Positions 3 to 17,360 of a DNA stretch of 34,507 nucleotides are shown here, in pieces. This DNA comes from an uncultured Alphaproteobacteria bacterium (GTDB lineage Bacteria > Pseudomonadota > Alphaproteobacteria > UBA11222). Both the position numbers and the translations under genes were made by a program. Under the pieces are notes generated by a model. It did no database searches and was not told the origin of the DNA. It saw only the letters and a program-made list of their open reading frames with translations. How positions within the stretch are numbered: the stretch's first letter is position 1; each line of letters opens with the position of its first letter. The stretch is from contig CALAQW010000029.1 in assembly GCA_937888955.1 (NCBI GenBank), positions 1-34,507 of the forward strand. Direction: 5' to 3'.

Positions 3-569
3 GTGTGCGGCTTACGCCTGGTCAACACGCTCGACCCGACGCGCAACCTCTCAAACATCACCTTCAACAATGCCCCGGCGGAACTCGTCGGCGCGGAAGG
101 CAGCGGTTGGTCGACCATCCGGCAGGTACTTGACCGGGCGGCTGTTCTGACGGCGTTCGAGCAGGTTGGCGGTGCCGACGCCGCGCTGCAAACGGCGAAG
201 GAATATGCGCTGGGCCGCTATGCGTTCGGCCGGCCGATCGCTTCGTTCCAGGCGATCAAGCACAAGCTTGCGGATATGTATATCAAGAACGAGCTTGCCC
301 GTTCGAACAGCTATTACGGCGCCTGGGCGCTGTCGACCAATGCGCCGGACCTGCCCGCAGCGGCAGCCGGTGCGCGGATTGCCGCAACCGACGCGTTCAA
401 CTTCGCGGCCAAGGAAAACATCCAGACCCATGGCGGCATGGGCTTCACCTGGGAATTCGACTGTCACCTGTTCTACCGGCGGGCAAAACTGCTCAGCGTT
501 TCTTTGGGCAGCGCGCTGTCCTGGAAAGACAAGCTGATTACCGAGCTTGAAAAGCGCAACGCAGCCTAG
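3..569 (+). CDS. acyl-CoA dehydrogenase, C-terminal part (5' end outside window)
   Basis: Frame open from the window edge; ACAD C-terminal motifs 'YALGRYAFGRPIASFQAIKHKLADMYI' and 'IQTHGGMGFTWEFDCHLFYRRAK'. Confidence 0.9.
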   Translation: MCGLRLVNTLDPTRNLSNITFNNAPAELVGAEGSGWSTIRQVLDRAAVLTAFEQVGGADAALQTAKEYALGRYAFGRPIASFQAIKHKLADMYIKNELARSNSYYGAWALSTNAPDLPAAAAGARIAATDAFNFAAKENIQTHGGMGFTWEFDCHLFYRRAKLLSVSLGSALSWKDKLITELEKRNAA

Positions 570-597: not shown

Positions 598-1827
598 ATG
601 GATTTCGAAGATACACCGGAAGAAGCCGAATTCCGTGCCGAAGTACGGGCATGGCTTGAGGCGAATGCACCCAAGAATGCCAGCGCCAATGCATTCAGCG
701 CCGATTTGAATGAAAAAGAGGCACTGAAGATCGCCAAGGAATGGCAGGCCAAAAAAGCCGAGGCGCGATACGCCAAAATCACCTGGCCGCGCGAAATCGG
801 CGGCATGGGCGGCACACCGATCCAGAATGTGATCTATTCGCAGGAGGAGGCCAAATTCAATCTTCCCGGCGGGTTTTTCGACATCGGGCTTGGCATGTGC
901 ATCCCGACCCTGCTGACCCATGGCACGCCGGAACAGGCGGAGCGTTACACCAGGCCCGCCCTCTATGGCGAGGAAATCTGGTGCCAGCTCTTCTCCGAAC
1001 CCGCGGCGGGCTCGGATCTGGCCGGCATTCGCACCCGTGCGGAAAAGGATGGCGATGAGTGGGTCGTCAATGGCCAGAAGATCTGGACCTCGGGCGCGCA
1101 TTATTCCGATTACGGAATTCTGGTGACACGCAGCAACCCCGATGTGCCCAAGCATAAGGGGCTGACCTTCTTCTTCCTCGACATGAAAACGCCGGGTGTG
1201 GAAGTCAAGCCGATCAAGCAGATCTCGGGCGGCGCGAACTTCAACGAAGTTTACTTCACCGATGTGCGCATTCCCGATTCCCAGCGTCTGGGCGCGGAAG
1301 GCGATGGCTGGAAAGTCTCGCTCACCACGCTGATGAACGAACGCGCGGCAATTGGCGGCGGCGGCGGTGCGCTTGGCACCGACGAGCTTCTGAAGCTGTT
1401 CCGCGGGATCGAGATGCATGACGGCCCCGCGATCAACAACATGGCGGTGCGCGAACGCCTCGCGGATTGGTATGTGCAGGGTCAGGGTCTGAAATATACC
1501 CGCTTCCGCTCGCTTACCGCGCTCAGCAAGGGCCAGACACCGGGTCCGGAGAACTCGATCGGCAAGGCGGTCAGCGCCCCGCGCGGGCAGGATTACACCT
1601 CCTTCGCGCTGGAGCTGATGGAACTTGGCGGCATGATCACCGATCCCGATTTGGCCCCGCTCAAGGCCGGCTTCCAAAGCGGCTGGCTGTTTGCGCCGGC
1701 CATGCGGATCGCGGGCGGTACTGATGAAATTCTGAAGAATATCATCGCTGAACGCGTGCTCGGCCTGCCCGGCGAAATCCGGGTTGACAAGGATACGCCA
1801 TTCAACGAACTGCCGACCGGGCACTAA
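598..1827 (+). CDS. acyl-CoA dehydrogenase (tandem paralogue A)
   Basis: 409 aa; 'EIWCQLFSEPAAGSDLAGIRTRAEKDGDEWVVNGQKIWTSGAHYSDYGILVTRS' and C-terminal 'GGTDEILKNIIAERVLGLP'; upstream AGGAG-like SD. Confidence 0.95.
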   Translation: MDFEDTPEEAEFRAEVRAWLEANAPKNASANAFSADLNEKEALKIAKEWQAKKAEARYAKITWPREIGGMGGTPIQNVIYSQEEAKFNLPGGFFDIGLGMCIPTLLTHGTPEQAERYTRPALYGEEIWCQLFSEPAAGSDLAGIRTRAEKDGDEWVVNGQKIWTSGAHYSDYGILVTRSNPDVPKHKGLTFFFLDMKTPGVEVKPIKQISGGANFNEVYFTDVRIPDSQRLGAEGDGWKVSLTTLMNERAAIGGGGGALGTDELLKLFRGIEMHDGPAINNMAVRERLADWYVQGQGLKYTRFRSLTALSKGQTPGPENSIGKAVSAPRGQDYTSFALELMELGGMITDPDLAPLKAGFQSGWLFAPAMRIAGGTDEILKNIIAERVLGLPGEIRVDKDTPFNELPTGH

Positions 1828-1850
1828 CCCCGGCGCGGCACACTTAAATC

Positions 1851-1904
1851 CGATCGGGAAGCACACGACCTGCCGACACGAGGGCGGTGGCCGCTTCCCG
1901 ATCG
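1851..1904. repeat. perfect 12-bp inverted repeat, 30-nt spacer, between ACAD A and B
   Basis: CGATCGGGAAGC (1851-1862) / GCTTCCCGATCG (1893-1904). Confidence 0.75.
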
Positions 1905-1977
1905 ATGCATTTGCCCATGATGCCCCCTCCCCGCAGCGCGGGTGGGCAGCGGCAGGTTCAGGAAAGCAGCATTTCTT

Positions 1978-3207
1978 ATGGATTTTGAAGATACCCCCGA
2001 AGAAGCCGAGTTCCGCGCGCAAGTCAGCGCCTGGCTTGAGGAAAATGCCGGTAATTTCGATGAGGGGCGCGACCGCAGCCGGCCACTCAGGGGCCGTGAA
2101 GTCATCGAACGCTCCAAGGCCTGGCAGAAGATCAAGGCGGATGCGGGCTATGCCGCAATCACCTGGCCCAAGGAATATGGCGGCATGGGCGGCACGTCGA
2201 TGCAGAACGTCATCTACGGACAGGAAGAAGCCAAATTCAACATGCCCGGCAATCTGTTCCTGATCGGGATCGGCATGGCGATGCCGACATTGATGGTGCA
2301 TGGCACCCCCGAACAGCGCGAACGTTTCATCCGCCCCGCCCTTTATGGCGAGGAGGTCTGGTGTCAGCTTTTCTCCGAACCCGGCGCGGGCTCCGATCTT
2401 GCCAATGTGCGTACCCGCGCGGAAAAGGACGGCGATGAATGGGTCGTGAATGGCCAGAAAATCTGGACCTCTGGCGCACATTATTCCGATTGGGGCATTC
2501 TGGTCGCGCGGACCGATCCGACAAAGCCGAAACATAAGGGGCTAAGCTATTTCCTCGTCGATATGAAAACACCGGGGATCGAGGCGAAGCCGATTACGCA
2601 GATTTCCGGCGCGCATCATTTCAACGAAGTCTATCTGGAGAATGTCCGCATTCCCGACGCCATGCGCGTTGGCGCGGAAGGCGATGGCTGGCAGGTTGCG
2701 CTGACCACGCTGATGAATGAACGTCAGGCGGTCGGCAATATGGGCTCAAGCGTCGGGGTCGAGGAACTTATCACGCTTGCACGGCAGACCGAGCTTGGCG
2801 ACGGCCCCGCGATCCGCAACATGGCCGTGCGTGAAAAGATCGCCGACTGGCATATTCAGGCAGAGGGGCTGAAATATATCCGTTTCATGAGCCTGACCGC
2901 CTTGAGCCGTGGTGAAACGCCAAGCCCGCGCGCCTCCATCTCGAAGGCGGTGAACGCACCGCGCAAGCAGGATCTGTCGGCCTTTGCGATGGAGCTGATG
3001 GATCTGGGCGGGATTATCCGCGACCGCGATCTGTCCCCCTTCCGCAGCCGGTTCCAGGAAGAATGGATCGCGGCACCCGGTATCCGGATCGCGGGCGGCA
3101 CCGATGAAATCATGCGCAACATCATTGCCGAGCGGGTATTGGGCCTGCCCGGCGATGTGCGCGTCGACAAGGATACCCCATTCAACGAGCAGCCGACCGG
3201 GCTCTGA
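1978..3207 (+). CDS. acyl-CoA dehydrogenase (tandem paralogue B)
   Basis: Start set to ATG 1978 (MDFEDTPEEAEFRA) by homology with paralogues A and C; ORF track starts at 1942. Full ACAD motifs. Confidence 0.95.
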   Translation: MDFEDTPEEAEFRAQVSAWLEENAGNFDEGRDRSRPLRGREVIERSKAWQKIKADAGYAAITWPKEYGGMGGTSMQNVIYGQEEAKFNMPGNLFLIGIGMAMPTLMVHGTPEQRERFIRPALYGEEVWCQLFSEPGAGSDLANVRTRAEKDGDEWVVNGQKIWTSGAHYSDWGILVARTDPTKPKHKGLSYFLVDMKTPGIEAKPITQISGAHHFNEVYLENVRIPDAMRVGAEGDGWQVALTTLMNERQAVGNMGSSVGVEELITLARQTELGDGPAIRNMAVREKIADWHIQAEGLKYIRFMSLTALSRGETPSPRASISKAVNAPRKQDLSAFAMELMDLGGIIRDRDLSPFRSRFQEEWIAAPGIRIAGGTDEIMRNIIAERVLGLPGDVRVDKDTPFNEQPTGL

Positions 3208-3252
3208 GACAAGACAGCCCGGCGATCGGCGAACGACAAGGGAGCTTGCGCC

Positions 3253-4461
3253 ATGGATTTCGAAGATACACCGGAAGAAGCCGAGTTCCGCGCGCAGGTG
3301 CGCGACTGGCTCGACAAGAACGCCCCGCGCTACCCGCTCGGCACCCGGCCGACCATGGAACAATCCAAGGCCTGGCAGGCGGTCAAGGCCGAAGCCGGCT
3401 ATGCGGCAATCACCTGGCCCAAGGAATATGGCGGCATGGGCGGCAAGTCGATGCAGAACGTCATCTACGGGCAGGAGGAATCGAAGTTCAATCTGCCCGG
3501 CGCCCTGTTCATCATCGGCATTGGCATGGCCCTGCCCACCATCATGGTGCATGGCCGCCCGGACCAGAAGGAGCGTTATATCCGAAAAGGTCTGTATGGG
3601 GAGGAGATCTGGTGCCAGCTATTTTCCGAACCCGGCGCGGGCTCTGATCTTGGCGGCATCCGCACCCGTTCGGAAAAGGATGGCGATGAATGGGTCGTGA
3701 ATGGCCAGAAAATCTGGACGTCGGGGGCGCATTATTCCGACCTTGGCATTCTGGTCACCCGCTCCGACCCGACGGTTGCCAAACATAAGGGGCTGACATT
3801 CTTCATTGTCGATATGAAGACGCCGGGCATTACCGTCAAACGCATCAAGCAGATTTCCGGTGAAAGCCACTTCAACGAGGTCTTTTTCGAAAATGTCCGT
3901 ATTCCGGACGAAAACCGTCTGGGCGCGGTTGGCGATGGCTGGAAAGTTGCCCTCACGGTTCTGATGAACGAACGCTCCGCTGTCGGCAGTATCGGGGTCA
4001 GCGTCGGCACCGAAGAACTCATCGATCTGGCGCGCGAGACCGAGCTGATCGACGGCCCCGCCATCAACAATATGGCGGTGCGCGAACGGATTGCCGACTG
4101 GCATGTGCAGTCACAGGGCCTGAAATATACCCGCTTCCGCTCCCTCACCGCGTTGAGCCGAGGGGAAACGCCGGGGCCGGAAAACTCCATCTCCAAGGCG
4201 GTCAGCGCGCCGCGCCGGCAGGATCTTGCGGGCTTTGCGGCTGAGTTGATGGATATGGGCGGCATCATCCGTGACCCGGATCTCGTGCCGTTCGCGGCAG
4301 GCTTTCAGGATAACTGGCTGTCTTCGCCCGGCATGCGGATCGCTGGCGGCACCGATGAGGTGATGCGCAATATCATCTCCGAACGGGTGCTGAAACTGCC
4401 TGGCGAAATTCGCGTCGACAAGGATCTGCCCTTCAACGAGCTGCCAACCGGCGCGGGGTGA
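3253..4461 (+). CDS. acyl-CoA dehydrogenase (tandem paralogue C)
   Basis: 402 aa; same N-terminus MDFEDTPEEAEFRA and same core motifs as A and B; SD 'AAGGGAG' upstream. Confidence 0.95.
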   Translation: MDFEDTPEEAEFRAQVRDWLDKNAPRYPLGTRPTMEQSKAWQAVKAEAGYAAITWPKEYGGMGGKSMQNVIYGQEESKFNLPGALFIIGIGMALPTIMVHGRPDQKERYIRKGLYGEEIWCQLFSEPGAGSDLGGIRTRSEKDGDEWVVNGQKIWTSGAHYSDLGILVTRSDPTVAKHKGLTFFIVDMKTPGITVKRIKQISGESHFNEVFFENVRIPDENRLGAVGDGWKVALTVLMNERSAVGSIGVSVGTEELIDLARETELIDGPAINNMAVRERIADWHVQSQGLKYTRFRSLTALSRGETPGPENSISKAVSAPRRQDLAGFAAELMDMGGIIRDPDLVPFAAGFQDNWLSSPGMRIAGGTDEVMRNIISERVLKLPGEIRVDKDLPFNELPTGAG

Positions 4462-7269: not shown

Positions 7270-7334
7270 GCACCTTTTCAGGGATGGCGGCGGCCGATCG
7301 TGCCGCCGTCAGCACTTCTGGCGGGAGGGCCATC

Positions 7335-8417
7335 ATGATCGATCTCGATCCGGGGGAAGAGCTTACCCTCATTCAGGATACCGCGCGCAAATTCGCGACA
7401 GAGGCGCTGAACCCCGCGCAACGCGATTTCGAGGCGGCGCGCGAAGTGGCCGCGGATATTCGCGCCGCTTTCGCTGAAATCGGCCTCGGCGCGCTCGAAA
7501 TTCCCGAGGAACTTGGCGGGGCCGGGCTTGGTGCGGTTGCGAAAGTGACGGTGCTGGAGGAGCTGGCGGCCGGGGATGCGGGTTCGGCCATCGCACTCGA
7601 CCCGCTTGGTGCGGCGCTATACGCGGTGAGCGAGCTGGGCGGTGATGGGGCGGTCGAACAATATTGCCTGCCGCTGCTGGAGCAGGACGGGGCCCGTGCG
7701 GTGCTGGTGCTTGCGGACGAGGCGACACTCGATATCGGTGCCGGCACGGTGAGTGGCACCATTCCCTGGGTGCCGGCAGACCGGGTTGACCTGCTTGCCA
7801 TTCTGACGCGCGAGGGTGCGGTGCTTGTTACAGACGGTCTTGCGCTTGAAAAACTGAAAGGGTCGGGGCTGCGCGCCGCGGGTGCGTCGGAAATCCGGCT
7901 CGACAATGCGCCCATCGCCGCTGCGTGGCAGGACAAAACCGGGGCTGCCCGCGCGCTGGCCCGCGCCCGGCTCGGCGCGGCGGCCCTGCTGTGCGGGGTG
8001 ATGCGCACCGCCTGCATCTATTCGCGCGAATATGCCAAGGACCGGGTCGCATTCGGCAAACCCATCGCCCATCATCAGGGGCTGGCCTTCCTGATCGTGG
8101 AAATGAACGCAGCCCTTGAAGGGGCGCGTATTCTGACCCAGGAAGCAGCAAGCCGCGCCGATCAGGGCCGCGCCTTTGAGGTTGCGGCCGCCCAGGCATT
8201 TGTGGAAGCAGCGGAACAAGCCGCCTATATCGGCCCGAATGCGCTGCAGATCCTTGGCGGGCCGGGCTTCATGGCTGATCTGCCGGTGGAGAAATATATG
8301 CGCGAATGCCGTGCATTGGGGCTGCTTTACGGTGGCATCGACCGTGCCCGCGAGGATATCGGGCAAACCTATCTTGACTGCGATCTGCCGATCCAACTGA
8401 CGGAGTATGAAGCCTGA
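7335..8417 (+). CDS. acyl-CoA dehydrogenase, subunit lacking the EGT Glu motif
   Basis: ATG 7335 after GGGAGGG; 'EYAKDRVAFGKPIAHHQGLAFLIVEMN', 'ALQILGGPGFMADLPVEKYMRECRALGLLYGGIDRARED'; TGATG overlap with the next gene. Confidence 0.9.
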   Translation: MIDLDPGEELTLIQDTARKFATEALNPAQRDFEAAREVAADIRAAFAEIGLGALEIPEELGGAGLGAVAKVTVLEELAAGDAGSAIALDPLGAALYAVSELGGDGAVEQYCLPLLEQDGARAVLVLADEATLDIGAGTVSGTIPWVPADRVDLLAILTREGAVLVTDGLALEKLKGSGLRAAGASEIRLDNAPIAAAWQDKTGAARALARARLGAAALLCGVMRTACIYSREYAKDRVAFGKPIAHHQGLAFLIVEMNAALEGARILTQEAASRADQGRAFEVAAAQAFVEAAEQAAYIGPNALQILGGPGFMADLPVEKYMRECRALGLLYGGIDRAREDIGQTYLDCDLPIQLTEYEA

Positions 8418-9604
8418 TGGATTTCACGATCGACAAGGCCACGCAGGCACGCCTCGAACGGGTGCATGAACTTGGCAAGAACTATATCCGTCCGCTCGGG
8501 CTTGAATGCGACCGGCTGGGCCGTCCGCTACCGCCTGAGCATGACTATTTCAAGATGCTGCACAAGATGGGCATGGGACGCACCCGCTGGCGGCCGAAAA
8601 AACCCGGCGAACCGGAAAAGAAAAAGGACACAAACAAACCCGGCAATACCCGCAGCACCCTGCTCGTGTCAGAGGAAATGTCTTACTGGGACCGGGGGGT
8701 CGCTGTATCGGGGCCAAGCCCCGGGCTTGGCGAGGGACCGCTGATCGCCATGGGCACGGAAGAGCAGAAGGAACGGTTTCTCGGCCCGTTCATCAATCCC
8801 GACAGGCCGCGCTGGGCCGCTTTCGCGATGACCGAACCGGGCGCGGGCTCGGATGTGGCGGGGATTCGCACCCGCTGCGTCAAGGATGGCAAGCACTGGA
8901 TCCTCAACGGCAACAAGTCGTTTTCGGGCGCGTCGAGCCGGGCTGACTGGATCCTCGTCTGGGCGACGATTGACCCCGCACTTGGCCGCGACGGGCATCG
9001 TGCCTTCATTGTGGAAAAGGGGACGCCCGGCCTTGGCAACTTCCATATCGAGAAGAAGACCGGCATCAAGGGGTATGAATCCACCTCCTTCGTGATGAGC
9101 GATTGCCGGGTGCCGGAGGAAAACCTTGTTGGCGGGGAGGAATATTATACCGGCGGCAAGGGGTTCAAGGGGGCGATGAAGACCTTCAATTCGACCCGTC
9201 CGATGATCGCCGCCATGGCGGTGGGGATGGCGCGCGCCGCGGTGGACGAGGCGATGCGCTTTGCGCGGGACAATGATCTGCTTGGCGATGTGCGGGTGCG
9301 CGACCGGCTGGAGCGCATGCACCGCAAGGTGAAGATGTGCCGCCTGCTGACTTTCAAGGCAGCCTGGCTTGCCGATCATCAGATGCCCAATATCGTCGAA
9401 GCCTCCATGTGCAAGGCGCTTGCCCCGCAGGTCGGGATGGAAGCAGCGAGCCTTGGCATGGAACTGCTGGGGCTTGTCGGCGGACGCGGCGATCACCTGA
9501 TCGAGAAGCTGTACCGCGACATGAAAGCCATGGATATCGTCGAGGGGACGGGCCAGATCCAGCGCGTGGTGATGGCGCGGCAGCTTGTCGGCTTCCCCAA
9601 CTAG
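8417..9604 (+). CDS. acyl-CoA dehydrogenase
   Basis: 'FAMTEPGAGSDVAGIRTRCVKDGKHWILNGNKSFSGAS' and C-terminal 'VEGTGQIQRVVMARQLVG'. Confidence 0.93.
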   Translation: MDFTIDKATQARLERVHELGKNYIRPLGLECDRLGRPLPPEHDYFKMLHKMGMGRTRWRPKKPGEPEKKKDTNKPGNTRSTLLVSEEMSYWDRGVAVSGPSPGLGEGPLIAMGTEEQKERFLGPFINPDRPRWAAFAMTEPGAGSDVAGIRTRCVKDGKHWILNGNKSFSGASSRADWILVWATIDPALGRDGHRAFIVEKGTPGLGNFHIEKKTGIKGYESTSFVMSDCRVPEENLVGGEEYYTGGKGFKGAMKTFNSTRPMIAAMAVGMARAAVDEAMRFARDNDLLGDVRVRDRLERMHRKVKMCRLLTFKAAWLADHQMPNIVEASMCKALAPQVGMEAASLGMELLGLVGGRGDHLIEKLYRDMKAMDIVEGTGQIQRVVMARQLVGFPN

Positions 9605-13926: not shown

Positions 13927-14799
13927 TTACTGCGCCTTATGGCCGTAGGTATCGCGGTCGTAATATTCCGACTGGTGGGTAGAATCGCGCCCGCCCCAGC
14001 CAAATTCGATCATCCAGCCCGACGGGTTGGCCGCATAGAATGAATACATCTGATCGTTGGCGTGGCAGCCCGGCGTGATGCCCACATGGATATCGTTCTG
14101 CTGCACAAGATCATAAGCAAGCCCGACATCATGGAAGGCTTCATATTCGAGCATCAGGTGATTGATCCGCTTGTCGCTTGGCAAGCCGAAGGCCAGCGTG
14201 TGATCACGATCATTGCAATGCAGGAACATAATCTCGAACGGCTTGTCCATACCCGGAATCGGGATGCGGTATTCCACGCCGCCACGCATGCCAAGCAGGC
14301 TGTAGAAGGCGTGGGTTTTCTCAAACCCCACCGTCTCGCGCAGGATGAGATGGCCCAAACCGCCCGTACCGGTCTTGAACCGGCCATGCATGGCGCGGCC
14401 CGGATGGAACGGTTTATGGGTCTGCACATGCGGGCCGTGAAAAATCTCCAGCGCATTGCCGCTTGGATCCTCAAGCCGCATCAGCTCAAGCACATGCCGC
14501 TCCTGCGCGTCCTCGGCGCTGGCGAGCTGTACCGTCACGCCTGCGTTCTCAAGCTGGGCACGCATGGCGCGAAACTCCTCCGCACCGGCAACACGAAAAC
14601 CAAGGAAGGAAAGATCGTCGCTGCCATCCTCTTCAACAATGATGCGGTGATGCCAATAATCCATACGCAGGAAGCATTGCCTGGGATGAGCGCCATCAAC
14701 AACCTCAAGCCCGACGATCCGGGCGGCATAATCGCGCCAGTCCGCGAGGCTTTTGACGCCGATCCCCATATAGCCAAGTTCGGTTACTTTCTGCATCAT
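13927..14799 (-). CDS. type I (VOC) extradiol ring-cleavage dioxygenase, BphC/HsaC-like
   Basis: Two-domain VOC protein with metal-ligand contexts 'GGLGHLIL' (His), 'INHLMLE' (His), 'GWMIEFGWGG' (Glu), plus 'GCHANDQMYSFYAANPSG'. Confidence 0.9.
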   Translation of the reverse strand: MMQKVTELGYMGIGVKSLADWRDYAARIVGLEVVDGAHPRQCFLRMDYWHHRIIVEEDGSDDLSFLGFRVAGAEEFRAMRAQLENAGVTVQLASAEDAQERHVLELMRLEDPSGNALEIFHGPHVQTHKPFHPGRAMHGRFKTGTGGLGHLILRETVGFEKTHAFYSLLGMRGGVEYRIPIPGMDKPFEIMFLHCNDRDHTLAFGLPSDKRINHLMLEYEAFHDVGLAYDLVQQNDIHVGITPGCHANDQMYSFYAANPSGWMIEFGWGGRDSTHQSEYYDRDTYGHKAQ

Positions 14800-14840: not shown

Positions 14841-15719
14841 TCACTGGCGCAAGCTTGCCCGGATCTGATCGGGCCGGGCGAGGCTACCGCCCGCTCCTTC
14901 GATCGCCGATACCGCTTCGGTAACGATTTCAAGGTTTGTCTTCGGCGTGCCAAGTCGCGCATCCTCAAGTCCTACCCGGACATGTCCGCCCAACGCGACC
15001 GCAAGCGGTATGAGCGGCGTCAGATCCACATCGAGACCTGCGATCATCCAGGGCGCATCAGGTGCGAACTCGCGCAGCAATTCATGATAGGCCTGCAACG
15101 CATAGGGTTTTGGCGGATAGCTGAAGGTAAAGCCATCGGTAAACATCAACCGATAGATGGGCTGCCCCGCGCCGGGTTGTTCCGCCGCAAGCTGCGCCCC
15201 GAGCCGCAGAAATCCCGGCTCGTAAATCGCATAGGCCATCGGCAGGCCAAGCGTTGCCGCAAAACCCAGCCCGGCGCGGATATGTTCAACCGAATTGGTA
15301 TAGACAAACCCCTTATCGCCGGCCGCCACCTGCCCCGCATGCGCAAAATTCATCGATCCGGGATCCAGCGCCCCCCATTCGACAAGACCGCGATCCGCCA
15401 GCCCCTTCAGGGCGGCAAAGCGTGCATCAGCCCCGCCTTGGGGATCGATATCCGCACTGCCATCGGCGGGCAAGGTCGGATAGACAATCGCATCGCAACG
15501 GCTGCGAATCCCGTCGACAATCGCGGCGTAAAGATCGGCATCGTCTTTTTGCCGCCCCGTCGCCACATCATAGGCATGAAAATGCACGATTGCGGCCCCG
15601 GCCTCGACGCAGGCCACCGCATCGTTAACGATTTCATCGACGCTGACCGGAACATGGGGCTGACGCCGTTTTCCCCATGGGCCATTGAGCGCGACTTCAA
15701 GCCAGCATTGACCGGCCAT
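14841..15719 (-). CDS. beta-keto acid cleavage enzyme (BKACE, DUF849)
   Basis: 'AAIVHFHAYD' (HxH metal site) and 'GGHVRVGLEDARLG' (R..GLED motif); SD GGAGGG. Confidence 0.9.
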   Translation of the reverse strand: MAGQCWLEVALNGPWGKRRQPHVPVSVDEIVNDAVACVEAGAAIVHFHAYDVATGRQKDDADLYAAIVDGIRSRCDAIVYPTLPADGSADIDPQGGADARFAALKGLADRGLVEWGALDPGSMNFAHAGQVAAGDKGFVYTNSVEHIRAGLGFAATLGLPMAYAIYEPGFLRLGAQLAAEQPGAGQPIYRLMFTDGFTFSYPPKPYALQAYHELLREFAPDAPWMIAGLDVDLTPLIPLAVALGGHVRVGLEDARLGTPKTNLEIVTEAVSAIEGAGGSLARPDQIRASLRQ

Positions 15720-15820
15720 AACCCTCCCCCTGCCGCTTGTTCTTTTATGGGATTAAGTGTAGAGAAGCCCGGCATTTCCACAAAGCGTTATTACCCGAAC
15801 AACGCACCGCGTCAGGGAAG

Positions 15821-15849
15821 AAAAAAAGGCCGTTCCCGCAGGAACGGCC
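15821..15849 (-). terminator. Rho-independent terminator (3' end of sRNA candidate)
   Basis: Minus strand GGCCGTTCC-TGCG-GGAACGGCC-TTTTTTT. Confidence 0.92.
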
Positions 15850-15913
15850 CGAGTTTAGGGAGGAAACGCCCAGGAAGGGCAACGGCGGGAGGGATGAAAA
15901 TCCCTGTGCCGTG
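15821..15913 (-). ncRNA. small RNA candidate resembling the alphaproteobacterial MmgR/alpha-r8 family
   Basis: Minus-strand ACGGC..AGGGAU-UUUC-AUCCCU..GCCGU hairpin, GCCC-UUCCU-GGGC hairpin, unpaired UUUCCUCCCU (15857-15866), 9-bp GC-rich terminator with U7; promoter-like boxes immediately upstream. Confidence 0.75.
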
Positions 15914-15918
15914 AATTC

Positions 15919-15946
15919 ATATTAGCTGAATCGTGGCGGCATTCAA
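15919..15946 (-). promoter_or_regulatory. candidate sigma70-type promoter for the sRNA
   Basis: -35 TTGAAT (15946-15941), 16-nt spacer, -10 TAATAT (15924-15919), placing the start near 15912 at the base of the first hairpin. Confidence 0.55.
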
Positions 15947-15986
15947 CAAAAAAATGCTGCTTTGCAACAAAATTTTTGCGTCGCAC

Positions 15987-16025
15987 AAAAATTAATTAAC
16001 ATGCTGATTTATATAATTAATTTTT
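15987..16025. repeat. perfect 12-bp AT-only inverted repeat, 15-nt spacer
   Basis: AAAAATTAATTA (15987-15998) / TAATTAATTTTT (16014-16025). Confidence 0.7.
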
Positions 16026-16091: not shown

Positions 16092-17360
16092 CTAAATTGT
16101 CGAATTTGGCGGGCAATCCGCGATTCGCCGATAAAAAAGCAGCGCCGCAATCAGGCTGAGCGCCAGAAATCCGAATACCAACTGATATGCCGCGACCGGC
16201 GCAGGCGCGCCAGGAGGCACGAATTGCCCGATTATCAACCCGGCCAGAAATTGCAGCAGCCCCGCGCCTGCCATATTGCCCATGTTGAGCAGGGTAATGC
16301 CGCGCCCCACCAATGCATCGGGGAAAATCGACCGCCCATGGGCCAGCGAGATCGCGGTATAGCCATTGCAAAACCCCAATACAATGAATAGTCCGGTGAC
16401 CGGGACAAGTCCGGATTCCGGTGCCAATGCCAACAACAGCAGCGCCGAGGCGCTTCCCGCACCGCCCAGCAGGATTGGCCGCTTGCGGCTGTTCATCCGA
16501 CGATCGAGCGGCCCCCAGAACAGCATGCCAAGTGCGACCGCGATCGACATCAGCAGCAATATATTGCCCCGCCCCGGCCCGTCGAGCCCATAGACATCAT
16601 TCAGAAATGGCGCGCCCCAAAGCCCCAATACGCTGATCATCGCGCCGTAGGCGACAAATTGCAGGGCAAAGATATAGGGCAAAGCGGGATTGCGCAGCAC
16701 CGCCCCCAGCCCGCGCATGCTCTGCAACAGGCTTTCGCGCGGACGTGGTGGCTGCAATTCCTGCGCAGGCGCATTGCGCACGGTTCCAAGCACAAGCAAT
16801 GCCATCAATGCGGTAATCACGGCCAATGCCCAAAAAGCACCGCGCCAGCCAATCCACTCCGAAACCGCGGCAAGCGGCGTCGTTGCAAGCAGTACCCCTA
16901 ACGTGCCCGCGGCAATCTGTATGCCCGACAATGTCGCAAACCGGTCGGCGGGAAACCAGCGTGTATAAATCATCAATGGGCCCATGAGCAGACAGGCGCA
17001 CCCGACGCCCATCATCACACGCCCGCTCCCAAGCCCCAAAAGACCATCGGCACGGGCAAAAATCACGCAACCGACAATCGCAAATATCATCAGCACAACC
17101 ATGGAATTACGCGCACCATAGCGGTCAAGCATCAGCCCGACAGGGATCTGTGCCAGTGCGAATGAAAAGAAGAAAGCGCCGCTCAACACCCCAAGCCCAC
17201 CGGGTGCAAGCTGCAGATCACGTGACAATTCCGGCGCGATCACACCGGTCGAAGACCGCAAGAACTGACTGATCATATAGGCGCCGCACAACACAGCGAC
17301 GAGTCCGATGACCCGCCACCTCCCTGGCATTGCTTGCTTGTCCTGCGGCATTATTTCCAC
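16092..17360 (-). CDS. major facilitator superfamily transporter
   Basis: 422 aa with about 12 TM segments; MFS motif-like 'PVGLMLDRYGARNSM'. Confidence 0.92.
   Translation of the reverse strand: MEIMPQDKQAMPGRWRVIGLVAVLCGAYMISQFLRSSTGVIAPELSRDLQLAPGGLGVLSGAFFFSFALAQIPVGLMLDRYGARNSMVVLMIFAIVGCVIFARADGLLGLGSGRVMMGVGCACLLMGPLMIYTRWFPADRFATLSGIQIAAGTLGVLLATTPLAAVSEWIGWRGAFWALAVITALMALLVLGTVRNAPAQELQPPRPRESLLQSMRGLGAVLRNPALPYIFALQFVAYGAMISVLGLWGAPFLNDVYGLDGPGRGNILLLMSIAVALGMLFWGPLDRRMNSRKRPILLGGAGSASALLLLALAPESGLVPVTGLFIVLGFCNGYTAISLAHGRSIFPDALVGRGITLLNMGNMAGAGLLQFLAGLIIGQFVPPGAPAPVAAYQLVFGFLALSLIAALLFYRRIADCPPNSTI

What the first reader, a model, noticed from the sequence alone, without database searches (positions are those of the whole stretch)
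15821..15946. Intergenic sRNA with an unpaired UUUCCUCCCU anti-Shine-Dalgarno-type motif
Seen in sequence (minus strand): promoter-like boxes TTGAAT-N16-TAATAT, a predicted start at the foot of hairpin 1 (ACGGC..AGGGAU-UUUC-AUCCCU..GCCGU), hairpin 2 (GCCC-UUCCU-GGGC), a single-stranded GUUUCCUCCCUAAACUC, then a 9-bp GC-rich terminator with seven U. No ORF explains this. Established knowledge (from memory): the alphaproteobacterial alpha-r8/MmgR sRNAs (Rfam suhB family) carry a conserved unpaired UUUCCUCCCU core plus an intrinsic terminator, and MmgR limits polyhydroxybutyrate accumulation in Sinorhizobium. Inference: this is a divergent family member next to catabolic genes; its targets here would be the new part.
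Basis: partly seen in the sequence, partly recalled or inferred. Interest (0 to 1): 0.62.

Follow-up and report, generated by a model that had tools for sequence, protein, structure and literature searches.

The report
PHB-linked small regulatory RNA (αr8/MmgR family)
This is a genuine, strongly scoring member of a known family of small RNAs that bind ribosome-binding sites of messenger RNAs in Alphaproteobacteria, and its promoter carries what looks like the binding site of PhaR, the protein that senses stored bioplastic (PHB), a wiring that turns out to be common to most members of the family.

Summary
Window 15912-15821 (minus strand) encodes a three-stem-loop RNA with an unpaired UUUCCUCCCU and an intrinsic terminator. 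It hits Rfam RF00519 (suhB/mmgR, αr8) at 70.8 bits against a gathering score of 41 (E 7e-13). Hairpin 2 and the terminator covary across about 100 relatives. It is not 'divergent': among 144 alphaproteobacterial genomes it is one of the best-scoring copies, and it is the only copy found in its genome. The added finding is upstream. A perfect match to the published Sinorhizobium PhaR (AniA) consensus lies at 15971-15991, a similar box precedes the phasin gene of this genome, and the genome encodes PhaR, phasin and Hfq. Across the class the PhaR core dyad TGCRNYGCR lies within 150 nt upstream of 60 of 88 non-redundant αr8 loci (shuffles 6; background about 5%), and phaR and αr8 genes co-occur (66 of 71 αr8 genomes). 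PhaR binding to mmgR was shown experimentally only in S. meliloti; here it is inferred. Most likely mechanism: a PHB-responsive, Hfq-dependent sRNA that blocks translation by pairing at Shine-Dalgarno sites, as shown for Caulobacter SisA. Specific targets could not be resolved. New member of a known kind.

The parts
15971..15991 (-). PhaR/AniA-type operator, TTTTTGTGCGACGCAAAAATT, about -59 to -79 from the predicted start
   Evidence: Full match to the S. meliloti consensus WNWD2NYGCRNYGCRNH2WNW (PMC12542648); one of two matches in 34.5 kb, 0.38 expected, and the only intergenic one; present at about the same place in the 4 same-family genomes with the sRNA
15958..15966 (-). Second, imperfect TGCAAAGCA(GCA) dyad between the operator and the -35 box
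   Evidence: also TGCAGAGCA in G001 at the same distance; does not fit the RNY centre of the consensus
15941..15946 (-). -35-like box TTGAAT
   Evidence: Sequence; only TTG kept in same-genus G001 (TTGCGC)
15919..15924 (-). -10-like box TAATAT, spacer 16
   Evidence: Sequence; TATTAT in G001
15882..15912 (-). Hairpin 1 at the predicted 5' end
   Evidence: other αr8 loci have a hairpin here too, mean z -2.0 over 100 loci against -0.4 for a control segment; sequence differs between genera of the same family
15868..15880 (-). Hairpin 2 GCCCUUCCUGGGC
   Evidence: all 5 pairs of the modelled helix have changes on both sides among relatives
15857..15866 (-). Unpaired seed UUUCCUCCCU
   Evidence: exact decamer in 89 of 103 αr8 loci
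15820..15850 (-). Intrinsic terminator with T run
   Evidence: 11 covarying pairs
15813..15887 (-). RF00519 (suhB/mmgR) covariance-model hit
   Evidence: 70.8 bits, GA 41
14841..15719 (-). Downstream gene, beta-keto acid cleavage enzyme (BKACE); candidate target by seed pairing at AGGGGGAGGG
   Evidence: PF05853; second strongest seed duplex of 34 window gene starts, -14.6 kcal/mol, kept in G001 at -16.1
13927..14799 (-). Next gene, glyoxalase-fold/extradiol-dioxygenase-like; candidate target
   Evidence: PF00903, PF22632; strongest seed duplex, -19.1 kcal/mol
16092..17360 (-). Upstream MFS transporter; the sRNA has its own promoter region downstream of it
   Evidence: PF07690

Best explanation
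The locus encodes a roughly 92-nt trans-acting sRNA of the αr8 (suhB/MmgR/SisA) family. Its promoter carries a PhaR operator, so the RNA most likely responds to the PHB store: PhaR sits on the operator when no PHB is present and is drawn off it by PHB granules, together with its release from the phasin promoter. The RNA then, with Hfq, uses its unpaired UUUCCUCCCU to pair with G/A-rich ribosome-binding sites of carbon-metabolism mRNAs and blocks their translation. Shown here: sequence, fold, family membership, covariation, conserved operator, presence of phaR, phasin and hfq genes. Shown elsewhere: PhaR binding to the mmgR promoter and de-repression in a phaR mutant of S. meliloti; seed pairing upstream of start codons with Hfq for SisA of Caulobacter. 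Inferred here: transcription, PhaR binding, the sign of its effect (the box lies upstream of -35 in this lineage), and the targets.
For: RF00519 hit, 70.8 bits; fold z -5.4 and unpaired seed; covariation score 0.481 against 0.171 shuffled, all 16 pairs with changes on both sides. Operator: perfect consensus match 15971-15991, with the consensus from PMC12542648, where PhaR binds mmgR by EMSA; similar boxes (TTTTTTGTGCGCTGCACAAAAAA and TGTTGCAGTGCAACA) in front of the phasin gene of this genome. PhaR at C42, phasin at C65, Hfq at C12. Class-wide: TGCRNYGCR within 150 nt upstream in 60 of 88 non-redundant αr8 loci, shuffles mean 6, max 14; 33 of 48 against 5.4% of background pieces from the same loci; spacer-3 dyad in 57 loci against 4-8 for spacers 0, 2, 4 and 5; 63 of 88 loci in phaR+ genomes and 0 of 5 in phaR- genomes; phaR and αr8 co-occur, 66/71, Fisher p 3e-15. 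Mechanism precedents: PMC12559287.
Against: No transcript data. About 30% of loci lack the dyad. In the window the box lies upstream of -35, whereas in S. meliloti mmgR it lies close to the start, so repression is less certain. The seed does not pair well with the phasin leader of this genome (about -10.5 kcal/mol), so the PHB phenotype of MmgR may be reached through other targets. The Caulobacter paper found no shared motif upstream of sisA-D.
Confidence: 0.75

Rival explanations
1. An αr8 sRNA whose TGC dyads are bound by another regulator, or are of no consequence; the RNA responds to nitrogen or stress and not to PHB.
For: S. meliloti mmgR also responds to NtrC and nitrogen source (PMC7143759); the PhaR box here is upstream of -35, and the second dyad is imperfect.
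Against: The full 21-nt PhaR consensus is matched, the phasin promoter of the same genome carries similar boxes, and none of 5 αr8 loci in phaR-less genomes has TGCRNYGCR.
Confidence: 0.17
2. The RNA works mainly on its neighbours: made from the MFS-BKACE intergenic region, it represses the downstream BKACE-glyoxalase genes, whose ribosome-binding sites fit its seed.
For: The two downstream genes give the strongest seed duplexes of 34 window gene starts, and the BKACE site is kept in G001; the sRNA/MFS/BKACE/glyoxalase order is kept in G001.
Against: Post-hoc ranking in one window with a seed that fits any good Shine-Dalgarno; the neighbourhood is not kept in the other genus of the family, while the sRNA is; studied family members are trans-acting.
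Confidence: 0.05
3. Only the read-through terminator of the MFS gene, without an independent RNA.
For: Same strand as the MFS gene, which ends about 180 nt upstream of the predicted start.
Against: Conserved hairpin 1, hairpin 2 and seed, own promoter-like boxes and operator, and conservation in genomes with other neighbours.
Confidence: 0.03

Closest known systems
MmgR of Sinorhizobium meliloti (RF00519, αr8)
   Same: Unpaired anti-SD-type seed UUUCCUCCCU, three stem-loops, terminator, PhaR/AniA box in the promoter region (PMC12542648, PMC7143759, PMC12559287)
   Different: PhaR box lies upstream of -35 here and not close to the start; neighbours differ; NtrC control not examined
SisA-D of Caulobacter crescentus (αr8)
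   Same: Seed and architecture; the αr8 RNAs with proven base-pairing to mRNA 5' regions (PMC12559287)
   Different: One αr8 copy found here against four; a sponge RNA like CrfA was not sought; not next to an FGase gene (sisA is); the Caulobacter paper reports no shared upstream motif
SorX / BjrC1505 type sRNAs (RF02784, RF02356)
   Same: C-rich anti-SD-like core plus terminator
   Different: Core CUCCCUGUU, not UUUCCUCCCU; the window does not reach the SorX threshold and has no listed BjrC1505 match

Membership tests
RF00519 suhB/mmgR (αr8) | Covariance-model score above gathering (41 bits) | tested here: met
   70.8 bits, full model 1-77
RF00519 suhB/mmgR (αr8) | Unpaired 10-mer UUUCCUCCCU downstream of a weak hairpin | tested here: met
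RF00519 suhB/mmgR (αr8) | Rho-independent terminator | tested here: met
   covariation of the stem
RF00519 suhB/mmgR (αr8) | Own promoter | tested here: inconclusive
   Boxes TTGAAT-N16-TAATAT by eye, not listed by the sigma-70 scan; TTG-N16-TAnnAT kept in G001; no transcript data
RF00519 suhB/mmgR (αr8) | Helices supported by covariation | tested here: met
   16 of 16 pairs with changes on both sides, 94.9% of cells paired (the alignment was fitted to the structure)
RF00519 suhB/mmgR (αr8) | Hfq-dependent trans-acting RNA | not testable with these tools
   hfq gene present; function needs experiment
PhaR regulon (as mmgR in S. meliloti) | PhaR consensus box upstream and phaR gene in the genome | tested here: met
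PhaR regulon (as mmgR in S. meliloti) | PhaR binds the promoter and changes the RNA level | not testable with these tools
   Known only from S. meliloti EMSA and mutant (PMC12542648)
αr8 next to an N-formylglutamate amidohydrolase gene (common synteny, not defining) | Adjacent FGase gene | tested here: not met
   Neighbours are MFS and BKACE; Sis paralogues B-D also lie elsewhere

The most novel reading that the evidence does not exclude
PhaR control of αr8 sRNAs is an ancient, class-wide circuit of Alphaproteobacteria: the PHB sensor PhaR controls phasin and αr8 together, so that the filling of the carbon store is turned into post-transcriptional control of catabolic mRNAs.
Probability: 0.6. 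Interest if true: 0.55.

Novelty: new member of a known kind. Interest (0 to 1): 0.38.

Why it matters
MmgR and SisA are the αr8 RNAs that have been studied, one linked to PHB storage and one to starvation and nutrient uptake, with no common input known. A PhaR box in front of about two thirds of αr8 genes suggests a common input, PHB status, and makes the link between the two model systems testable. The window adds a single-copy member in an uncultured lineage.

Tried and rejected
Target census: GGGAGGAA-N(0-8)-ATG occurs 34 times in G000 and a same-composition permutation AGGAGGGA only 3 times, which looked like selection for seed sites; but the ratio GGGAGGAA/AGGAGGAA is 1.58 in αr8+ genomes, 1.30 in αr8- genomes and 1.83 in αr8- genomes of at least 3 Mb (a hand-picked subset of 51 genomes), so it looks like general ribosome-binding-site preference and says nothing about targets. 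Seed-to-phasin pairing: weak. The exact decamer AGGGAGGAAA gave RBS-positioned hits in G000 for an LLM-type oxidoreductase (C27) and a GST-like protein (C163), different genes from those in G001, so no conserved exact-decamer target. First multiple alignments mixed strands and were replaced. Other Rfam hits at this place (RF02278, RF02784 and others) are below their gathering scores. Lagares 2016 and 2017 are not held, so whether the class-wide promoter conservation is already published is not known to me.

Full report
Observation. The 92-nt RNA from 15912 to 15821 folds into three stem-loops at -42.8 kcal/mol, z = -5.4, with the GUUUCCUCCCUAAACUC stretch open; the pairing probability of the seed is near zero. 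A terminator scan finds the last stem-loop; the promoter boxes, by my count 8 of 12 consensus positions, were not listed by the sigma-70 scan.

Identity. Rfam gives RF00519 (suhB, 'Makes More Granules Regulator') at 70.8 bits, gathering score 41, E 6.9e-13 over the whole window, and nothing else above threshold. It is the only copy found in this genome. Of 144 genomes drawn from the class, 87 have a hit and 71 one above the gathering score; the window's copy is among the best scoring. A model built from 13 relatives finds the copies in the fetched loci; counted on that alignment, all 16 modelled pairs show changes on both sides, 94.9% of cells pair, and the covariation score is 0.481 against 0.171 for shuffles and at most 0.13 for slid partners (the alignment leans to the model's structure). 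The 5' hairpin, largely outside the Rfam model, is kept as a structure (mean z -2.0 over 100 loci, control -0.4) while its sequence differs between the two genera of this family. The decamer UUUCCUCCCU is exact in 89 of 103 loci.

Setting. The organism is an uncultured alphaproteobacterium of a small family; exact matches to a 37-nt piece of the RNA come from unnamed alphaproteobacterial MAGs and from Zavarzinia. The sRNA lies between an MFS transporter and a BKACE gene followed by a glyoxalase-fold, extradiol-dioxygenase-like gene. This order is kept in the same-genus genome G001 and not in the other genus. The adjacent N-formylglutamate amidohydrolase gene described for most αr8 loci (PMC12559287) is absent. 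The original description of the suhB motif already called it a small RNA with its own promoter and terminator, in several copies in many alphaproteobacterial genomes and without fixed neighbours (PMC1273637).

Upstream operator. The AT-rich region before the -35 box holds two TGCNNNGCA dyads, 15985-15977 and 15966-15958. The first, in TTTTTGTGCGACGCAAAAATT, fits in full the PhaR (AniA) consensus WNWD2NYGCRNYGCRNH2WNW derived in S. meliloti, where PhaR binds the mmgR promoter in EMSA and represses mmgR (PMC12542648). Full-consensus boxes lie at about the same distance in G001-G004. The genome encodes PhaR, one phasin and Hfq, and the phasin promoter carries a similar box upstream of its -35 plus a second one further downstream. 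This internal comparison is the strongest reason to call it a PhaR operator.

Class-wide test. In 100 αr8 upstream regions (150 nt) the dyad TGC-N3-GCA occurs in 57, against 10.8 in dinucleotide shuffles (max 18 in 200 trials), 11 downstream, and 4-8 for spacers 0, 2, 4 and 5; spacers 1 and 6 are also high, which I attribute to the motif often continuing as GCRGCA. After removal of similar upstream regions, TGCRNYGCR occurs in 60 of 88 loci from 70 genomes, shuffles 6.0, max 14, downstream 5. Against 150-nt background pieces of the same loci it is 33 of 48 versus 5.4% (6.1% for AT-richer pieces). phaR and over-threshold αr8 co-occur in 66 of 71 αr8 genomes (p 3e-15), and TGCRNYGCR is in 63 of 88 loci of phaR+ genomes and 0 of 5 of phaR- genomes; genome size and common descent confound the co-occurrence, and five loci are few.

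Mechanism. Demonstrated for αr8 RNAs elsewhere: SisA pairs by the conserved 10-mer with mRNA 5' regions, with Hfq, and represses TonB-dependent receptors (PMC12559287); MmgR limits PHB and phasin levels (PMC7143759, PMC8401924). From this I infer that the window's RNA blocks translation at G/A-rich ribosome-binding sites and that PHB status, through PhaR, sets its level. The sign in this lineage is open because the box lies at about -59 to -79.

Targets. The seed fits any good Shine-Dalgarno sequence. A genome-wide pattern census suggested an excess of GGGAGGAA before ATG in G000, but αr8-less genomes of similar size show the same preference, so it is not evidence. Within the window the two downstream genes have the strongest seed duplexes of 34 starts (-19.1 and -14.6 kcal/mol), a post-hoc lead only. 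The phasin leader pairs weakly.

Verdict. An ordinary, well-supported member of a known sRNA family. The part worth following is the wide conservation of a PhaR-type box in αr8 promoters. The S. meliloti case is published; I could not read the 2016 phylogenetic paper on mmgR, so I cannot say that the wider pattern is new.

Noticed in passing
L203 (G001) 251-325, L204 (G002) 251-321, L205 (G004) 251-320 minus strand: A second conserved sRNA-like element in the same family, core CUCCCUGUUGAAACUUGGGC plus terminator, with sub-threshold hits to SorX RF02784 and BjrC1505 RF02356; in G002 and G004 it lies 2.4-4.6 kb from the αr8 gene on the same contig. Not in the window.
   Followed up: partly
L007 (G038) 1272-1871; L139/L151/L157 (G153): Three tandem αr8 copies with starts about 230-290 nt apart in two genomes of one genus.
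   Followed up: no
L199 (G001:C23:30276-30356): A weak αr8-like paralogue in the same-genus genome (41.6 bits) with altered seed CCUCUCCCU and no PhaR dyad; not found in the window's genome.
   Followed up: no
window 598-4461 and 7284-9604: Several acyl-CoA dehydrogenase-like ORFs, three of them in tandem (598, 1942, 3253) with very similar N-termini, suggesting duplication in a catabolic region (by eye).
   Followed up: no
L031 1863-2080: Intergenic region between phaR and the divergent acetyl-CoA acetyltransferase gene carries TTGCAATGCGCAA-type repeats, possible PhaR autoregulation.
   Followed up: no
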